Of a DNA stretch of 35,994 bases, positions 4,630 to 27,660 are shown piece after piece (within the stretch, counting starts at the first letter, position 1; the number at the start of each line of letters is the position of its first letter). Origin of the DNA: a virus; the IMG/VR virus record IMGVR_UViG_3300037010_000841, positions 1-35,994 of that record. The stretch is one strand, 5' to 3'. A model generated the notes under the pieces. The model worked only from the letters and a program-made list of their open reading frames with translations. It was not told the origin of the DNA and ran no database searches. Position numbers and translations under genes: made by a program.

Positions 4630-5409
4630 ATGCTACCCGACAGAACCGCCCTCATGCTCGAGGCCGCGCGCCGGCGCAATGCTGCACGCCACGCCCGCGA
4701 GCGCGCAAAATCCCTCGTGCGCAAAGACCGCCGCCCCGATGTGCTGGCTGCTGGCCGTGCGCATCGCGCCATGCTCAAGCTCTACGCGCGTGCCGAAACG
4801 GAGTACCGCGCTTGCGTGCTGCATCCCGCCGTCGCGTCCGCCCCGGCTGCGCTGGCGCTTGGTGCTGAGCTTCGCCATGCCGTCGATCTTGTGCGCGACC
4901 TTGCGTATCGATGTGCAGGCTCACCCGCCGCCAATGCAATGCGCCTACGGATGCGCGAAGATGCGAATACAGCTATGCGCTTGGTGCGCCGGATTGAGGC
5001 GATCAAACGCCACGCGCCGCCATCCCCGCCCGTCCAGGCGGCCCCCAAGCTCGCGCCGATCACCCCGCCGCCGATGCCGTCCGCCCGTGACCCGCTGTAT
5101 CACGCGACCGATCCTAATGCGCAGGTCGAGCCTCGATCCGAGTATTACTGGGAAAAACACCTACACCGGCTCGACGGCTCCATTGACGCATGGCAGGCGC
5201 AGCGCAAAGCCGCCCGCAAGCAATACTTACAGTCTGAACAGGGCAAAGCCGCCCGCGCTCGATACGCGCAGTCTGACAAAGGCAAGGCCGCCCGCGCCGC
5301 CGCTGCCAAGCGTTACGCGCAGTCTGACAAGGGCAAGGCCGCCCGTGCCCGTGCCCAAGCCGCCTACCGCGCCCGGAAGTCGCCTGCTAACCCCTATGAG
5401 GAGGACTGA
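4630..5409 (+). CDS. Basic protein with C-terminal tandem repeats
   Basis: The protein is 259 residues. The N-terminal part is Arg/Ala-rich and helical; residues about 130-155 are Pro-rich and look like a linker. The C-terminal part has three copies of a 12-residue unit of the type YAQSDKGKAARA (near 5221, 5261 and 5312), also visible as DNA repeats of about 36 bases. Basic repeated helices of this kind often bind nucleic acid, which is inference. No Shine-Dalgarno is evident before the ATG at 4630. A longer frame from 4625 overlaps it, but is Pro/Ser/Arg low-complexity sequence. The gene follows the repeat-rich non-coding block and could be a DNA-binding factor for it. Confidence 0.65.
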   Translation: MLPDRTALMLEAARRRNAARHARERAKSLVRKDRRPDVLAAGRAHRAMLKLYARAETEYRACVLHPAVASAPAALALGAELRHAVDLVRDLAYRCAGSPAANAMRLRMREDANTAMRLVRRIEAIKRHAPPSPPVQAAPKLAPITPPPMPSARDPLYHATDPNAQVEPRSEYYWEKHLHRLDGSIDAWQAQRKAARKQYLQSEQGKAARARYAQSDKGKAARAAAAKRYAQSDKGKAARARAQAAYRARKSPANPYEED

Positions 5410-5470: not shown

Positions 5471-5501
5471 GTGCTGCACCATCAAAACTAAGAGAGAGTC
5501 C

Positions 5502-5834
5502 ATGCGTTATGTTTCAAAGACTTCCCCGTGCGGGAATAGGTCATGGAGCGACACGAGCCAGGACGAGGCTGATGCCCGATGCAATGCGCTCGATAAGGCT
5601 GGTTGCGTCGAGTGCATCGGCTGCGACGGGTGCGTTAATTGTACCGGCTGCGCAGACTGTGTTGACTGCACCAATTGCCTAGACTGCGTTGACTGTATCG
5701 ACTGCGCCGACTGCGTGGGCTGCACCGACTGCGCTAGCTGCGCCGCGTGCGCCAGTTGTACCGACTGCGTCGGCTGCGCCAACTGTCGCCGTCTACGCGG
5801 TATGTCGTACTACAAACTTCCCGTCACTGCTTAA
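5502..5834 (+). CDS. Cys-x-x triplet-repeat protein
   Basis: The protein is 110 residues; the start at 5502 follows an AAGAGAGAG Shine-Dalgarno, whereas an upstream ATG at 5469 has none. Residues 35-95 are an unbroken run with cysteine at every third position: 21 cysteines, with Asp, Gly, Asn, Ala, Val and Thr between them. The DNA shows a matching 9-base... rhythm of TGC or TGT codons. A short basic tail (RRLRG) and YYKLPVTA end the protein. Every-third-residue cysteine implies a regular thread-like or coil structure able to bind many metal ions or Fe-S clusters, or heavy disulfide bonding. No signal peptide is seen, so it is probably cytoplasmic and reduced. Function unknown. The sliding-clamp-like gene follows 20 bases later. 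Confidence 0.85.
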   Translation: MRYVSKTSPCGNRSWSDTSQDEADARCNALDKAGCVECIGCDGCVNCTGCADCVDCTNCLDCVDCIDCADCVGCTDCASCAACASCTDCVGCANCRRLRGMSYYKLPVTA

Positions 5835-5854: not shown

Positions 5855-6406
5855 ATGGAAAACACCCTTAACCTTGAAGTCCTTCGCGCCCTGCTTCCTT
5901 TGGCCGCTAAAAAAGACGTCCGCCGCTATCTGAACGGCGTCTATATCGACTTCCAGCCGGCCCAAACGATCTACGTAGCCACGAACGGCCACGTACTCGG
6001 CAAATACGTCGAGGCGGTCGAGAATGAATACGTTTTCGATATCACCATCCCCGGCGACGTGGTGAAACAACTCAAGCCTAAACCCGGAACGGCGAAGTGG
6101 GGCGACTTGATCTTTAACCCTGAGACGAAAGCCGCCCGCATCATCAACCCCGGCGCGGGCCAGGACTTCGGTTTCGCCCCGCTCGACGGCAAGTACCCCG
6201 ACTACACTAAAGTTATCCCCTCCAATGCCAGCGGCGAAGCCGCGCAATTCGACGTTAAGCTTTTGTCCCTCTTTGCCCAGGTCAACAAATCGCTTGGCGC
6301 GAAATATCCGGGCCGGATCAAGATCGACCATAACGGCAACGCCGGCGCACTGGTGCATCTGTGTCGCGATGCGTTCCTCGGCGTCATCATGCCCTTCCGC
6401 CCATAA
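5855..6406 (+). CDS. DnaN-like sliding clamp, about half the usual length
   Basis: The protein is 183 residues with an AGGAGAGAG Shine-Dalgarno. It has features of the DNA polymerase III beta clamp fold: YLNGVYIDF followed by an ATNGHVLG segment (compare the ATDGHRL signature of bacterial DnaN), then a KYPDYTKVIPS segment like the PDYRRVIP signature. Cellular DnaN has three clamp subdomains in about 370 residues; this protein is long enough for about one and a half, so it may assemble as a larger oligomer or act as a decoy. Its likely role is processivity for the phage DNA polymerase at 8868 or recruitment of the host replisome. No clamp loader was seen nearby. Confidence 0.75.
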   Translation: MENTLNLEVLRALLPLAAKKDVRRYLNGVYIDFQPAQTIYVATNGHVLGKYVEAVENEYVFDITIPGDVVKQLKPKPGTAKWGDLIFNPETKAARIINPGAGQDFGFAPLDGKYPDYTKVIPSNASGEAAQFDVKLLSLFAQVNKSLGAKYPGRIKIDHNGNAGALVHLCRDAFLGVIMPFRP

Positions 6407-18121: not shown

Positions 18122-18387
18122 TTCTCAATCAGCGTCTGTGACCGCACGGCCTTGAGCCTGCGCACTTCGTCCAGGATCACCGCGATAGCCGCGTCCGACT
18201 GCGCACGGAACCGGCTCTCGTCGGCCTTGATCGCCATATTGATCGCGCTGGCGGCTGCATCCTTCTGGATGGATAGCAGTCGCGCATAGTCGTTGTCCCA
18301 AGGCGCAGGGTTGAGGTCAAGAATGTCCTCGATCTTGCGCAGCGCCTTGTTGACGATCCGGTTGAGGTGGTTGGTCTGCTCGTTGTT
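18109..18387 (-). CDS. Start-less frame resembling a small terminase subunit
   Basis: Downstream of the ATP-grasp stop, the -1 frame stays open for 92 sense codons to TGA at 18109: helical, beginning around NNEQTNHLNRIVNKALRKIE and containing QKDAAASAINMAIKADESRF and a closing ILDEVRRLKA. This pattern (Q..AA..IN...K.DE.RFR, then an Ile/Leu-rich helix) resembles small terminase proteins of some podoviruses as I remember them. No ATG, GTG or TTG lies in frame between 18237 and 18649, and the ATG at 18235-18237 would leave only 42 residues. Possible explanations are a non-standard start, re-initiation, or ribosomal frameshifting from the ATP-grasp gene. Coordinates mark the frame after the upstream stop, not a proven start. 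Confidence 0.5.
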   Translation of the reverse strand, partial: NNEQTNHLNRIVNKALRKIEDILDLNPAPWDNDYARLLSIQKDAAASAINMAIKADESRFRAQSDAAIAVILDEVRRLKAVRSQTLIENHAA

Positions 18388-19697
18388 TACAGTTTCAGGC
18401 TCGTTGCATAGCCCATCTTCTGCAACTTGGGCAACTGGGAATTGAGGCGCTTGCCAATGTCCGTCCGATACATCGGGGAGTTCGGCACCGACAACGACTC
18501 CAAGGCTTTGTAGGCTTGCTCCCGGCTTGCGTCCACTGTTGGCGCTGCCGCCGCTGCTATGAGCAGATACGTCCCGGCGCTCACGAGGTGCATTTCCTCC
18601 ACGATCTTGTTTCCGCGTTCCACTGGCACCTTCGCTGCTTTCAGTTCGCAAGGGTGAATGTGGCTGCTCACCGCATCCAGGTTGTAGATCGGCGTGCCCG
18701 ACACTTCCTTGCGGCTCAGCTTGTTGTAAGGAAAGTCCGGGATCGCCAGCACGACCCCCGTTGCCGTTAGGCCCGTCAAGAAGTTCGTCCAGATCGATGA
18801 TCCGTTTAGGCTTTCGAGCATCCATTTTGCTGTGCTCCGGTGTAGTTGCTGCTGAATGTTGAAGATCGGCCAACCTGGGCGCATCGTAAACTCTAGCGGC
18901 CACGGGTTGCCTTTGTCGTCAATGATGACCGCAACATCCACGAACCCAATGTGCCCGCTGCGCACCAGATAGTCCTCCAGCGGCTTGAGCACTTTGTCGG
19001 CCAGCTTGGACTTCTCGGTGTAAGTGACGACAGTCCCCATTTCGCCTGTGTTCGGGCCTTTGTCGTCGTTCATCAGCTTCTTGTGCTCGAAGTTCTCGCA
19101 CCAAGGGCTTGCAAACCCGCCCGGCCCGACCCATGCGCCCACGGCCATTTCGATGCCGGGTTGGAACTGCTGCACGATGAACGCGGGGACGTGCTTACCG
19201 GTGCGCTTCCACTTTTCCAGCATGTAGACCATATCTGCCGGCCCTTTGCTGACGTAGGACAAGCTGCGGTCTGCGTCCCCAAATGGCTTGGAAACGTAGC
19301 GCCCCATATTGGCCTTGACGTAGGCGATGGCCTTGTCGTAGCTGGTAAACGTCTCGCCTTCGATGAGCGGTATGCCGTGCGCTTTGAGCACATCCATGCC
19401 CACCTGCCGGTTTAGCTCCCACTGCGCAGTGAAGCTGTTGGCCCCGTAAATCGGATACCCGCGCTGTCGCCACTTGTCCAGGTCGGCCATGTAGACCGCA
19501 TTGTCTGGCAGGAACACCAAGTCCGCCCAATTCATGTGCTGCTCCCAATGCTGCACCTTCTGGACAAGATGATCCCCAACAGTAATCATCCCATCGGGCT
19601 TGTTGCGGATGAACCACCGGACTTGTGCGCCCTCGGCCATGCTGCGTAGACAAAAGTCGAGCGCCAACGCCGACGGGTCGATGACGAGAATTTTCAT
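18387..19697 (-). CDS. PurD-like ATP-grasp ligase
   Basis: The protein is 436 residues, full length for phosphoribosylamine-glycine ligase. The Rossmann-like N-terminus reads MKILVIDPSALALDFCLRSM. The ATP-grasp core has YVSKPFGDADRS near 135, FIVQQFQPGIEMA near 172 and GPNTGEMG near 212, matching the GPNTGGMG loop of PurD. Then comes EFTMRPGWP near 267, where PurD has EFNCRFGDP. The C-terminal domain keeps ATGVVLA and MYRTDIGKRL. The Asn that helps bind magnesium and the following Asp are replaced, so the acceptor substrate may differ from phosphoribosylamine. The start overlaps the ejection-protein stop (ATGA). It lies at the end of the late block, apart from replication genes. Candidate roles are purine supply, DNA base modification or small-molecule synthesis; none is shown. 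Confidence 0.85.
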   Translation of the reverse strand: MKILVIDPSALALDFCLRSMAEGAQVRWFIRNKPDGMITVGDHLVQKVQHWEQHMNWADLVFLPDNAVYMADLDKWRQRGYPIYGANSFTAQWELNRQVGMDVLKAHGIPLIEGETFTSYDKAIAYVKANMGRYVSKPFGDADRSLSYVSKGPADMVYMLEKWKRTGKHVPAFIVQQFQPGIEMAVGAWVGPGGFASPWCENFEHKKLMNDDKGPNTGEMGTVVTYTEKSKLADKVLKPLEDYLVRSGHIGFVDVAVIIDDKGNPWPLEFTMRPGWPIFNIQQQLHRSTAKWMLESLNGSSIWTNFLTGLTATGVVLAIPDFPYNKLSRKEVSGTPIYNLDAVSSHIHPCELKAAKVPVERGNKIVEEMHLVSAGTYLLIAAAAAPTVDASREQAYKALESLSVPNSPMYRTDIGKRLNSQLPKLQKMGYATSLKL

Positions 19698-26155: not shown

Positions 26156-26776
26156 CTAACACCCTAGCAGTAGTGTTTGAGTCAGCACAGACTCAACTTG
26201 CTTGAAGTCTTGCGTCTGTTGCGCAAGCGCAAGCTGCGTGCCCACCTTGCGGATATGCGGCAAAATTTTGGCTGAAAAGTCTGGATGCTGGCGCATCGTG
26301 GCTATATGGTCATAGCCGATGCCGATTGCGTTGGCGAGCAGCATGTTCTCGGCGCGGGCTTTTAGTTCTTCTGCCCACTCGTCTTGCTGCATGGCTTGCT
26401 CCATCTTGAGAATGTCAGCGTCCCAATGCTTGCACATAGGCTTGAGTTCTTCGAGCAGGGCGTTGATCTCTTGCAGTTCTCGCTTTGCGCCCTCCAGGTT
26501 AAGCTCGAAGTTCTTGCGTGCCGCCTTCAGCTTAATGAGTTCAGCCTGGGCGCGCAAGCGATCCGCTTCAGACGCGGCGGAAGCAACCTTCTCTTGCAAT
26601 TCCAGCTCGCTTGCTTTTTGCTCAAGGAGACTCGCTTCGCCTGCCGCTACGTCCATTTCAACTTGTTCACCTTGCGCGTACAAAAGGCAGAACGCTGCGT
26701 CTGGCGTGTAGCAAGACCCGGCAATGAAATGCCGAAGGGCGAAAGAAGAGTGCTTCCGATGATTGTTGATAATCAT
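26156..26776 (-). CDS. Coiled-coil protein of unknown function
   Basis: The protein is 206 residues. After about 45 residues with cysteines, a long Glu/Ala/Leu/Lys helix runs from about 45 to 115 (ASELELQEKVASAASEADRL), then a mixed helical C-terminus. No signal peptide or membrane helix is seen. The start overlaps the kelch-like gene stop. It could be a tail or fibre assembly chaperone or a virion component; coiled coil and position after fibre genes are the only guides. It is not an obvious Rz spanin because it lacks an N-terminal membrane anchor. Confidence 0.7.
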   Translation of the reverse strand: MIINNHRKHSSFALRHFIAGSCYTPDAAFCLLYAQGEQVEMDVAAGEASLLEQKASELELQEKVASAASEADRLRAQAELIKLKAARKNFELNLEGAKRELQEINALLEELKPMCKHWDADILKMEQAMQQDEWAEELKARAENMLLANAIGIGYDHIATMRQHPDFSAKILPHIRKVGTQLALAQQTQDFKQVESVLTQTLLLGC

Positions 26777-27660
26777 TACCAGTTTACTCCGGGGTTAGGC
26801 GAGCAGGCAGCCAACTCATATGACGTATAACTCAAGTTCCCGCCAGCAGCAGCGGTGTTTGAGGAATACGTGTAAACGGATGTAGTGTTAAAGACACTGG
26901 AGCCGTTATACCCGCCGCCAAAAACGCCAAGCGTGCTGTTGCCTGCGGCAGCTAAATAATACGCTGCGTAGCTCAAGTTCCCGCCAGCAGCGGCGGTGTT
27001 CGAGGAATACGTGTAAACGGATGTAGTATTGACGCCGCCGTTCCCGCCACCAAAGACGCCGAGCGTACTGTTGCCTGCGGCAGCTAATCTATAAGCTGCG
27101 TAGCTCAAGTTCCCGCCAGCAGCGGCGGTGTTTGAGGAGTATGTGTAAACGGATGTAGTATTGACGCCGCCGTTCCCGCCGCCAAAGACGCCTAGCGTAC
27201 TGTTGCCTGCGGCAGCTAATTCAGACGCTGAGTAGCTCAAGTTCCCGCCAGCAGCGGCGGTGTTTGAGGAGTATGTGTAAACGGATGTAATGTTAGTGGG
27301 GCCGTTGCCGCCGCCAAAGACGCCGAGCGTACTGTTACCTGCGGCAGCTAAATAATACAGTGCAGAACTCAATTTCCCGCCAGCAGCGGCGGCGTTTGAT
27401 GCGTATGTGTAAACAGATGTAGTGGTTAGACCGCCCCCGTTATACCCGCCGCCAAAGACGCCTAGCGTGCCGTTGCCTGCGGCAGCTAAATTGACCGCTG
27501 CGTAGCTCAAGTTCCCGCCAGCAGCAGCGGCGTTCGAAGCATATGTGTAAACGGATGTAGTGTTTAAGACGCCCCCGTTATACCCGCCGCCAAACAGAGC
27601 AAACTTTCCAACCTTTGCGACTTGGTTGTTCCACATCCCCCAAGGAATTGAAACCAGCAT
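26776..27660 (-). CDS. Kelch-like repeat protein, probable six-blade propeller
   Basis: The protein is 294 residues with AAGGAAAAG before the ATG. After about 20 residues it consists of six near-identical units of 44-47 residues, each with LGVFGGG, TTSVYTYSSNTAAAGGNLSY and LAAAGN. The double glycine and spaced aromatics match kelch repeats, so one closed beta-propeller is expected. There is no signal peptide. It follows the tail fibre and is probably a tail-associated receptor-binding or glycan-binding part, though a decoy role is possible. Units 2-5 are most alike, indicating recent unit duplication or gene conversion. Confidence 0.8.
   Translation of the reverse strand: MLVSIPWGMWNNQVAKVGKFALFGGGYNGGVLNTTSVYTYASNAAAAGGNLSYAAVNLAAAGNGTLGVFGGGYNGGGLTTTSVYTYASNAAAAGGKLSSALYYLAAAGNSTLGVFGGGNGPTNITSVYTYSSNTAAAGGNLSYSASELAAAGNSTLGVFGGGNGGVNTTSVYTYSSNTAAAGGNLSYAAYRLAAAGNSTLGVFGGGNGGVNTTSVYTYSSNTAAAGGNLSYAAYYLAAAGNSTLGVFGGGYNGSSVFNTTSVYTYSSNTAAAGGNLSYTSYELAACSPNPGVNW
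26836..27640. repeat. Six imperfect DNA repeats of about 132-141 bases
   Basis: Units begin with the bases TTCCCGCCAGCAGC near 26836, 26977, 27109, 27241, 27372 and 27511. They encode the kelch-like blades. High identity between units allows copy-number change by recombination. Confidence 0.9.

What the first reader, a model, noticed from the sequence alone, without database searches (positions are those of the whole stretch)
5502..5834. Protein with 21 cysteines at strict every-third-residue spacing
Residues 35-95 are a pure Cys-x-x triplet array with no exception. Ordinary zinc-binding domains do not use such long unbroken arrays. Possible uses are metal sequestration, a redox sink, an Fe-S or multi-metal rod, or a novel solenoid. 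It is an early gene just before a clamp-like protein.
Basis: seen in the sequence. Interest (0 to 1): 0.7.

Follow-up and report, generated by a model that had tools for sequence, protein, structure and literature searches.

The report
Cysteine-every-third-residue phage rod protein
A small phage protein with a cysteine at exactly every third position for 61 residues belongs to a widespread, apparently undescribed family of phage proteins in which this cysteine array takes the place of known rod-shaped beta-helices; its biological role is still unknown.

Summary
The gene at 5502-5834 encodes 110 aa with 21 Cys at residues 35, 38 ... 95 without exception. It is not drifting repeat DNA: against four ungapped relatives, Cys codons show 54 identical, 29 synonymous and 1 nonsynonymous comparison, while 80 of 160 intervening codons changed amino acid. 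Array lengths change only by whole triplets, and all seven close relatives found through the neighbouring clamp gene keep it.

It belongs to a broad phage family (PHROG 15341, unknown function) sharing an N-terminal cap. In 101 array proteins retrieved by their C-terminal domains, 2563 of 2569 Cys-to-Cys steps are exactly three residues. One such C-terminal domain also follows pentapeptide repeats, hexapeptide (YdcK-type) solenoids, C-x-F-G hexads and an LRR-like array, so the Cys array is swapped with known solenoids. The same inward-every-third-residue register is published for Tenebrio antifreeze protein (12-residue coil).

Best reading: a compact beta-solenoid rod with a thiol-lined core and variable exposed faces, probably an accessory host-interaction protein. 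The fold is inferred: AlphaFold stayed at low confidence in the array. Metal or redox chemistry is untested. I found no paper describing the family.

The parts
5502..5834 (+). CDS of the 110-aa Cys-triplet protein (P0001), stop codon included
5490..5498 (+). purine-rich ribosome-binding-site-like stretch AAGAGAGAG before the ATG
   Evidence: seen in sequence; a similar stretch precedes the next gene
5502..5603 (+). N-terminal cap, residues 1-34 (G-N-x-x-W ... EA ... L motif; predicted hairpin plus helix 20-32)
   Evidence: alignment A2, AF2 (pLDDT about 60-65); the homologous cap of L549 is predicted at pLDDT about 90
5604..5786 (+). Cys-x-x array, residues 35-95, 21 Cys; X2 rich in D/N/G, array acidic
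5787..5831 (+). short tail RRLRGMSYYKLPVTA, conserved in close relatives; no large C-terminal domain
4630..5409 (+). upstream neighbour, about 82% identical and syntenic in relatives, with 13-residue repeats
5855..6406 (+). downstream neighbour, sliding-clamp-like protein

Best explanation
The protein is a phage-encoded short-repeat solenoid. A small N-terminal alpha/beta cap nucleates a compact right-handed beta-helix made of C-x-x units. Each Cys points into the core, X1 (S/T/I/V/R) sits on the strand and X2 (D/N/G) makes the turn, probably four triplets (12 residues) per coil as in beetle antifreeze protein. The cysteines are the core residue of this solenoid type, as Ala/Leu are in pentapeptide repeats; in the reducing cytoplasm they would be thiols, or paired or metal-bound if conditions allow. 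The rod offers variable outward X faces and changes length by gaining or losing triplets. It most likely acts early in infection as an accessory binder or scaffold for a host or phage macromolecule. Shown: the family, the register, selection on Cys, retention, and domain swapping with known solenoids. Inferred: the fold of the array, the coil size, and the function.
For: Cys register under strong purifying selection. Array gene kept in 7 of 7 close relatives found through the clamp gene. Shared N-cap with distant phages including Campylobacter phage CP20 and PHROG 15341. Scan with the CGCF C-cap pattern: the same cap follows Cxx arrays 30 times, hexapeptide arrays 43, pentapeptide arrays 27, plus C-x-F-G hexads and an LRR-like array. 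Cap PHROG 20532 matches the hexapeptide protein P0002 (2.2e-39), pentapeptide P0003 (1.6e-8) and all 30 Cxx members. Pfam types P0002 as YdcK solenoid (2.9e-15) and P0003 as pentapeptide (3.9e-6). The predicted cap matches viral proteins named beta-solenoid, pentapeptide and hexapeptide. A window-type N-cap with this C-cap occurs in one protein, L217. X1/X2 preferences fit strand/turn. The first AF2 model puts a bridge at every X1. The profile search of PDB sequences ranks Tenebrio AFP first (E 1.3e-4 whole sequence), whose inward residues are every third (PMC8038014).
Against: The array was never predicted with confidence: pLDDT 52-61 in model 1 and 53-57 without bridges in model 2. The PDB match is composition-driven (best stretch i-E 0.043, bias 44.9) and fold matches are weak (Z 3.8 or less). 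The 4-triplet periodicity signal disappears when segmental duplications are excluded, and array-length differences are not all multiples of four. The function claim rests on analogy, place in the genome and paralogue expansion only.
Confidence: 0.62

Rival explanations
1. Metal-loaded rod or sponge: the array binds many Zn, Cu(I) or Fe-S centres (C-x-x-C-x-x-C resembles cluster motifs) and the phage uses it to sequester metal or carry electrons.
For: Cys is kept in 83 of 84 codon comparisons and 2563 of 2569 steps are exactly three residues in cap-retrieved arrays, slightly stricter than the A (95.6%) and L (98.6%) core positions of pentapeptide arrays in the same cap class.
Against: The few in-register replacements are mainly Ser and Phe, not His/Asp ligands. 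Sharing caps with pentapeptide and hexapeptide solenoids argues for a structural core. No metal-related neighbour was noticed in a small sample of flanking genes, read by eye only. No Pfam metal family matches.
Confidence: 0.2
2. Polyproline-II-type or other triplet helix bundle, as in Gly-x-x collembolan antifreeze proteins, with Cys in the packed core.
For: Tripeptide repeats with the first residue inward form PPII bundles in Collembola (PMC10235112).
Against: That fold relies on side-chain-free Gly in the core; D/N/G at X2 and S/T/I/V at X1 fit turns and strands better; AF2 model 1 gives bridges at X1.
Confidence: 0.08
3. Precursor of a thiazole-modified peptide (heterocycloanthracin-like Cys-Xaa-Xaa bacteriocin).
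For: Those precursors also have Cys-Xaa-Xaa repeats and tripeptide indels (PMC2674419); TIGR03601 gives a trace score.
Against: TIGR03601 11.4 bits against a cut-off of 35; no YcaO in the record; no Bacillus-type leader, instead a folded N-cap shared with larger multidomain phage proteins.
Confidence: 0.03
4. Low-complexity repeat DNA without protein function, or an artefact of reading the wrong frame.
For: Short tandem periods of 9-36 bp; many C-x-x hits elsewhere look like collagen-like genes read out of frame.
Against: Codon test, synteny, retention and caps.
Confidence: 0.02

Closest known systems
PHROG 15341 (phage proteins, unknown function)
   Same: same N-cap and Cys-triplet array; window protein E 1.6e-11, all 30 members of A5 match
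   Different: no real difference: this is the family, an unnamed cluster without description
Phage pentapeptide repeat and YdcK/hexapeptide solenoid proteins carrying the PHROG 20532 cap
   Same: the same C-terminal domain caps Cxx-array relatives of the window protein
   Different: core residue and unit length differ (Cys triplet against A-D-L-x-x pentads and V-x-G-x-A-x hexads); the window protein itself lacks the large cap
Tenebrio molitor antifreeze protein (1EZG)
   Same: inward residue every third position in a repeat array, Cys-rich core (PMC8038014)
   Different: TCTxSxNCxxAx repeat with alternating Cys/Ser/Cys/Ala core, extracellular, disulfide-bonded, from beetles; no shared caps; likely convergent
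Heterocycloanthracin (TIGR03601)
   Same: Cys-Xaa-Xaa array, tripeptide indels
   Different: leader and cyclodehydratase system not found, below model cut-off

Membership tests
PHROG 15341 | profile match over N-cap and array | tested here: met
   E 1.6e-11, residues 12-96
Pentapeptide repeat proteins (PF00805) | A(D/N)LXX repeats recognised by Pfam | tested here: not met
   no Pfam match for P0001
PHROG 20532-capped phage solenoid proteins | C-terminal IGSR...CGCFxG domain | tested here: not met
   window protein ends in a 15-residue tail; relatives such as L217 have the cap
Short-repeat beta-solenoids in general | parallel beta-helix fold | tested here: inconclusive
   AF2 array pLDDT 52-61; fold matches are mostly beta-helices but weak
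Beetle antifreeze protein | 12-residue TCTxSxNCxxAx repeat | tested here: not met
   no T-C-T/S/C/A alternation in the array; profile hit is composition-biased
Heterocycloanthracin/sonorensin bacteriocins (TIGR03601) | score above curated cut-off | tested here: not met
   11.4 bits against 35
Heterocycloanthracin/sonorensin bacteriocins (TIGR03601) | YcaO/cyclodehydratase in the genome | tested here: inconclusive
   no YcaO in this virus record, but maturation genes may lie elsewhere
Zn-finger or ferredoxin-type metal proteins | bound metal or cluster | not testable with these tools
   no Pfam match; needs metal analysis

The most novel reading that the evidence does not exclude
A continuous all-thiol core running the length of a beta-solenoid that is loaded with metal or switches by disulfide formation, i.e. 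a genetically length-tunable redox or metal wire used by phages.
Probability: 0.15. Interest if true: 0.9.

Novelty: new variant of a known kind. Interest (0 to 1): 0.64.

Why it matters
If right, phages use one set of capping domains on at least four chemically different rod types, and the Cys triplet would be a very short solenoid repeat with an all-thiol core. That gives a simple, length-tunable protein rod, a concrete handle on a class of phage genes now labelled hypothetical, and a direct test of what these swapped solenoids do for the phage. It may also explain mis-annotation: such genes can be called in the wrong frame, as in Flavobacterium phage FL-1, and low-complexity filters hide their relatives.

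Tried and rejected
Coil size from sequence: lag-4 enrichment of X1/X2 and of aromatics vanished when segmental duplications were excluded, and control runs on pentapeptide and hexapeptide arrays showed little signal: inconclusive. Quantised array length (multiples of four triplets), suggested by the first eight relatives, failed with more relatives (16, 17, 20, 24, 25, 32 triplets). DNA mimicry: the window array is acidic, but family arrays average only -0.18 charge per triplet and 18% are not negative. Foldseek against PDB gave nothing significant for either model; the C-cap resembles PUR repeats only weakly (Z 6.0). PADLOC none. No Rfam family or tRNA in the window. First-pass viral hits with monotonous arrays (SGC, CCS and the like) were discarded as probable collagen-like genes read out of frame. 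Acinetobacter phage MD-2021a DNA hits are a simple TDC/APT repeat at the end of a contig with bacterial housekeeping genes. My expectation that the WHTC C-cap would often sit on pentapeptides was not borne out among the best 80 viral loci (71 Cxx), though PHROG 31265 appears to combine the two. Literature searches on C-x-x or CXXC repeats in phages found no description.

Full report
Observation. The ORF at 5502-5834 (+) encodes 110 residues with Cys at 35, 38 ... 95, 21 in all and no exception. It lies between a basic repeat-containing protein (4630-5409) and a clamp-like protein (5855-6406), in the rightward cluster that holds polA, an SNF2-type helicase and a primase.

Not drifting DNA. Eleven syntenic contigs were found. 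Terminase is about 99% identical between them, the clamp about 79%, the Cys gene 52-75%. In four ungapped comparisons, array Cys codons were identical 54 times, synonymous 29 times and nonsynonymous once; X1 and X2 codons changed amino acid in 43/80 and 37/80 comparisons. Arrays have 16, 17, 20, 24, 25 or 32 triplets: length varies by whole triplets. Using the clamp as query, which does not depend on the array, all seven relatives at 73-80% identity carry the array gene and two distant ones (30%) do not. Tandem second copies occur in L128, L131 and L358.

A broad family. Pattern scans returned many genuine arrays and many that look like collagen-like genes read out of frame, separated by entropy and caps. 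Genuine members share an N-cap of the form W-x-D-x-N-G-N-x-W ... EEA ... L-x-x-C (A2) and PHROG 15341. The window cap GNRSWSDTSQDEADARCNALDKAGC aligns with it; L217 has a window-like cap, MRYES...GN...SQ...AD, joined to a large C-terminal domain. The family occurs in Campylobacter phages and Flavobacterium phage FL-1. One 127-kb phage record gave 15 PHROG matches and a 41-kb one gave 10; 14 control genomes gave none. Most of the genome-contig hits were spurious; three loci (L317, L318, L345) look genuine.

Regularity without ascertainment. In 101 array proteins retrieved by C-terminal domains rather than by the array, 2563 of 2569 Cys-to-next-Cys steps are exactly 3; the others are 4, 5 and 6. 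As a control, pentapeptide arrays of the same cap class keep A at 95.6% and L at 98.6% of core positions, so the Cys constraint is only somewhat stricter than that of another solenoid core. X1 is S/R/T/I/Y; X2 is D/G/N/R/Y.

Swapping with known solenoids. Profile evidence agrees: PHROG 20532 matches P0002 (YdcK solenoid by Pfam), P0003 (pentapeptide by Pfam), a further pentapeptide protein and all 30 Cxx members. The predicted cap structure matches viral proteins named beta-solenoid repeat, ydcK, polymer-forming cytoskeletal, pentapeptide and hexapeptide. A second cap, WHTCETTHCRAGW, has 408 viral relatives; 71 of the best 80 carry Cxx arrays, and PHROG 31265 appears to join it to pentapeptides. 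This is the main reason to read the Cys array as a solenoid.

Fold. AF2 of the window protein had mean pLDDT 55 but placed a beta bridge at every X1 of the array; VIA matches were weak and mostly beta-helices, including Tenebrio AFP (Z 3.2, rmsd 5.1, 73 aligned) and MfpA (Z 2.0, rmsd 3.0, 46 aligned). AF2 of a capped relative gave confident N- and C-caps and an unresolved array. A profile search of PDB sequences put Tenebrio AFP first (E 1.3e-4 whole sequence, best stretch 0.043, strong composition bias). Published work states that beetle AFP has 12-residue coils with inward residues 2, 5, 8 and 11, i.e. every third, and disulfides between 2 and 8 (PMC8038014). The analogy is likely convergent. 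Direct sequence tests of a 4-triplet coil were inconclusive.

Function. Not shown. Position with replication genes, fast evolution, tandem duplication, paralogue expansion and variable outward residues fit an accessory host-interaction or scaffold protein; this is inference. Thiol chemistry remains open. Heterocycloanthracin-type modification is unlikely.

Novelty. The sequence cluster exists in PHROGs without a function. I found no paper on it in the held open-access library, which does not exclude one elsewhere. I rate it a new variant of a known kind: a Cys-triplet member of the phage short-repeat solenoid class.

Noticed in passing
L365:2027-2731 (Flavobacterium phage FL-1, KY421186): A 234-aa Cys-array ORF is not annotated; GenBank calls VAPIAP repeats in another frame instead (26567-26911), and the C-cap runs on in a different frame in the deposited sequence.
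   Followed up: partly
L462, L470, L514, L564: A further array type, C-x-F-G-x-x hexads (e.g. CSFGERCIFGECC), carries the same C-terminal cap: possibly another Cys-containing solenoid.
   Followed up: no
window 26831-27564 (-): 132/264-bp tandem repeats in a Kelch-like repeat protein of the structural module.
   Followed up: partly
window 18387-19697 (-): GARS/ATP-grasp-like protein (PF01071 E 1.1e-9) encoded beside the structural genes of the phage.
   Followed up: partly
window 5200-5297: 39-bp repeats encode 13-residue QSDKGKAARARYA-type units in the upstream neighbour protein.
   Followed up: no
window 5855-6406: PHROG 3007 is labelled RusA-like resolvase, but this window protein also matches sliding-clamp models, so the label may be wrong.
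   Followed up: no
L549 protein residues 98-165 (cap domain): The PHROG 20532 cap is predicted as four strands plus two helices and weakly resembles PUR repeats (Z 6.0 to PURA).
   Followed up: partly
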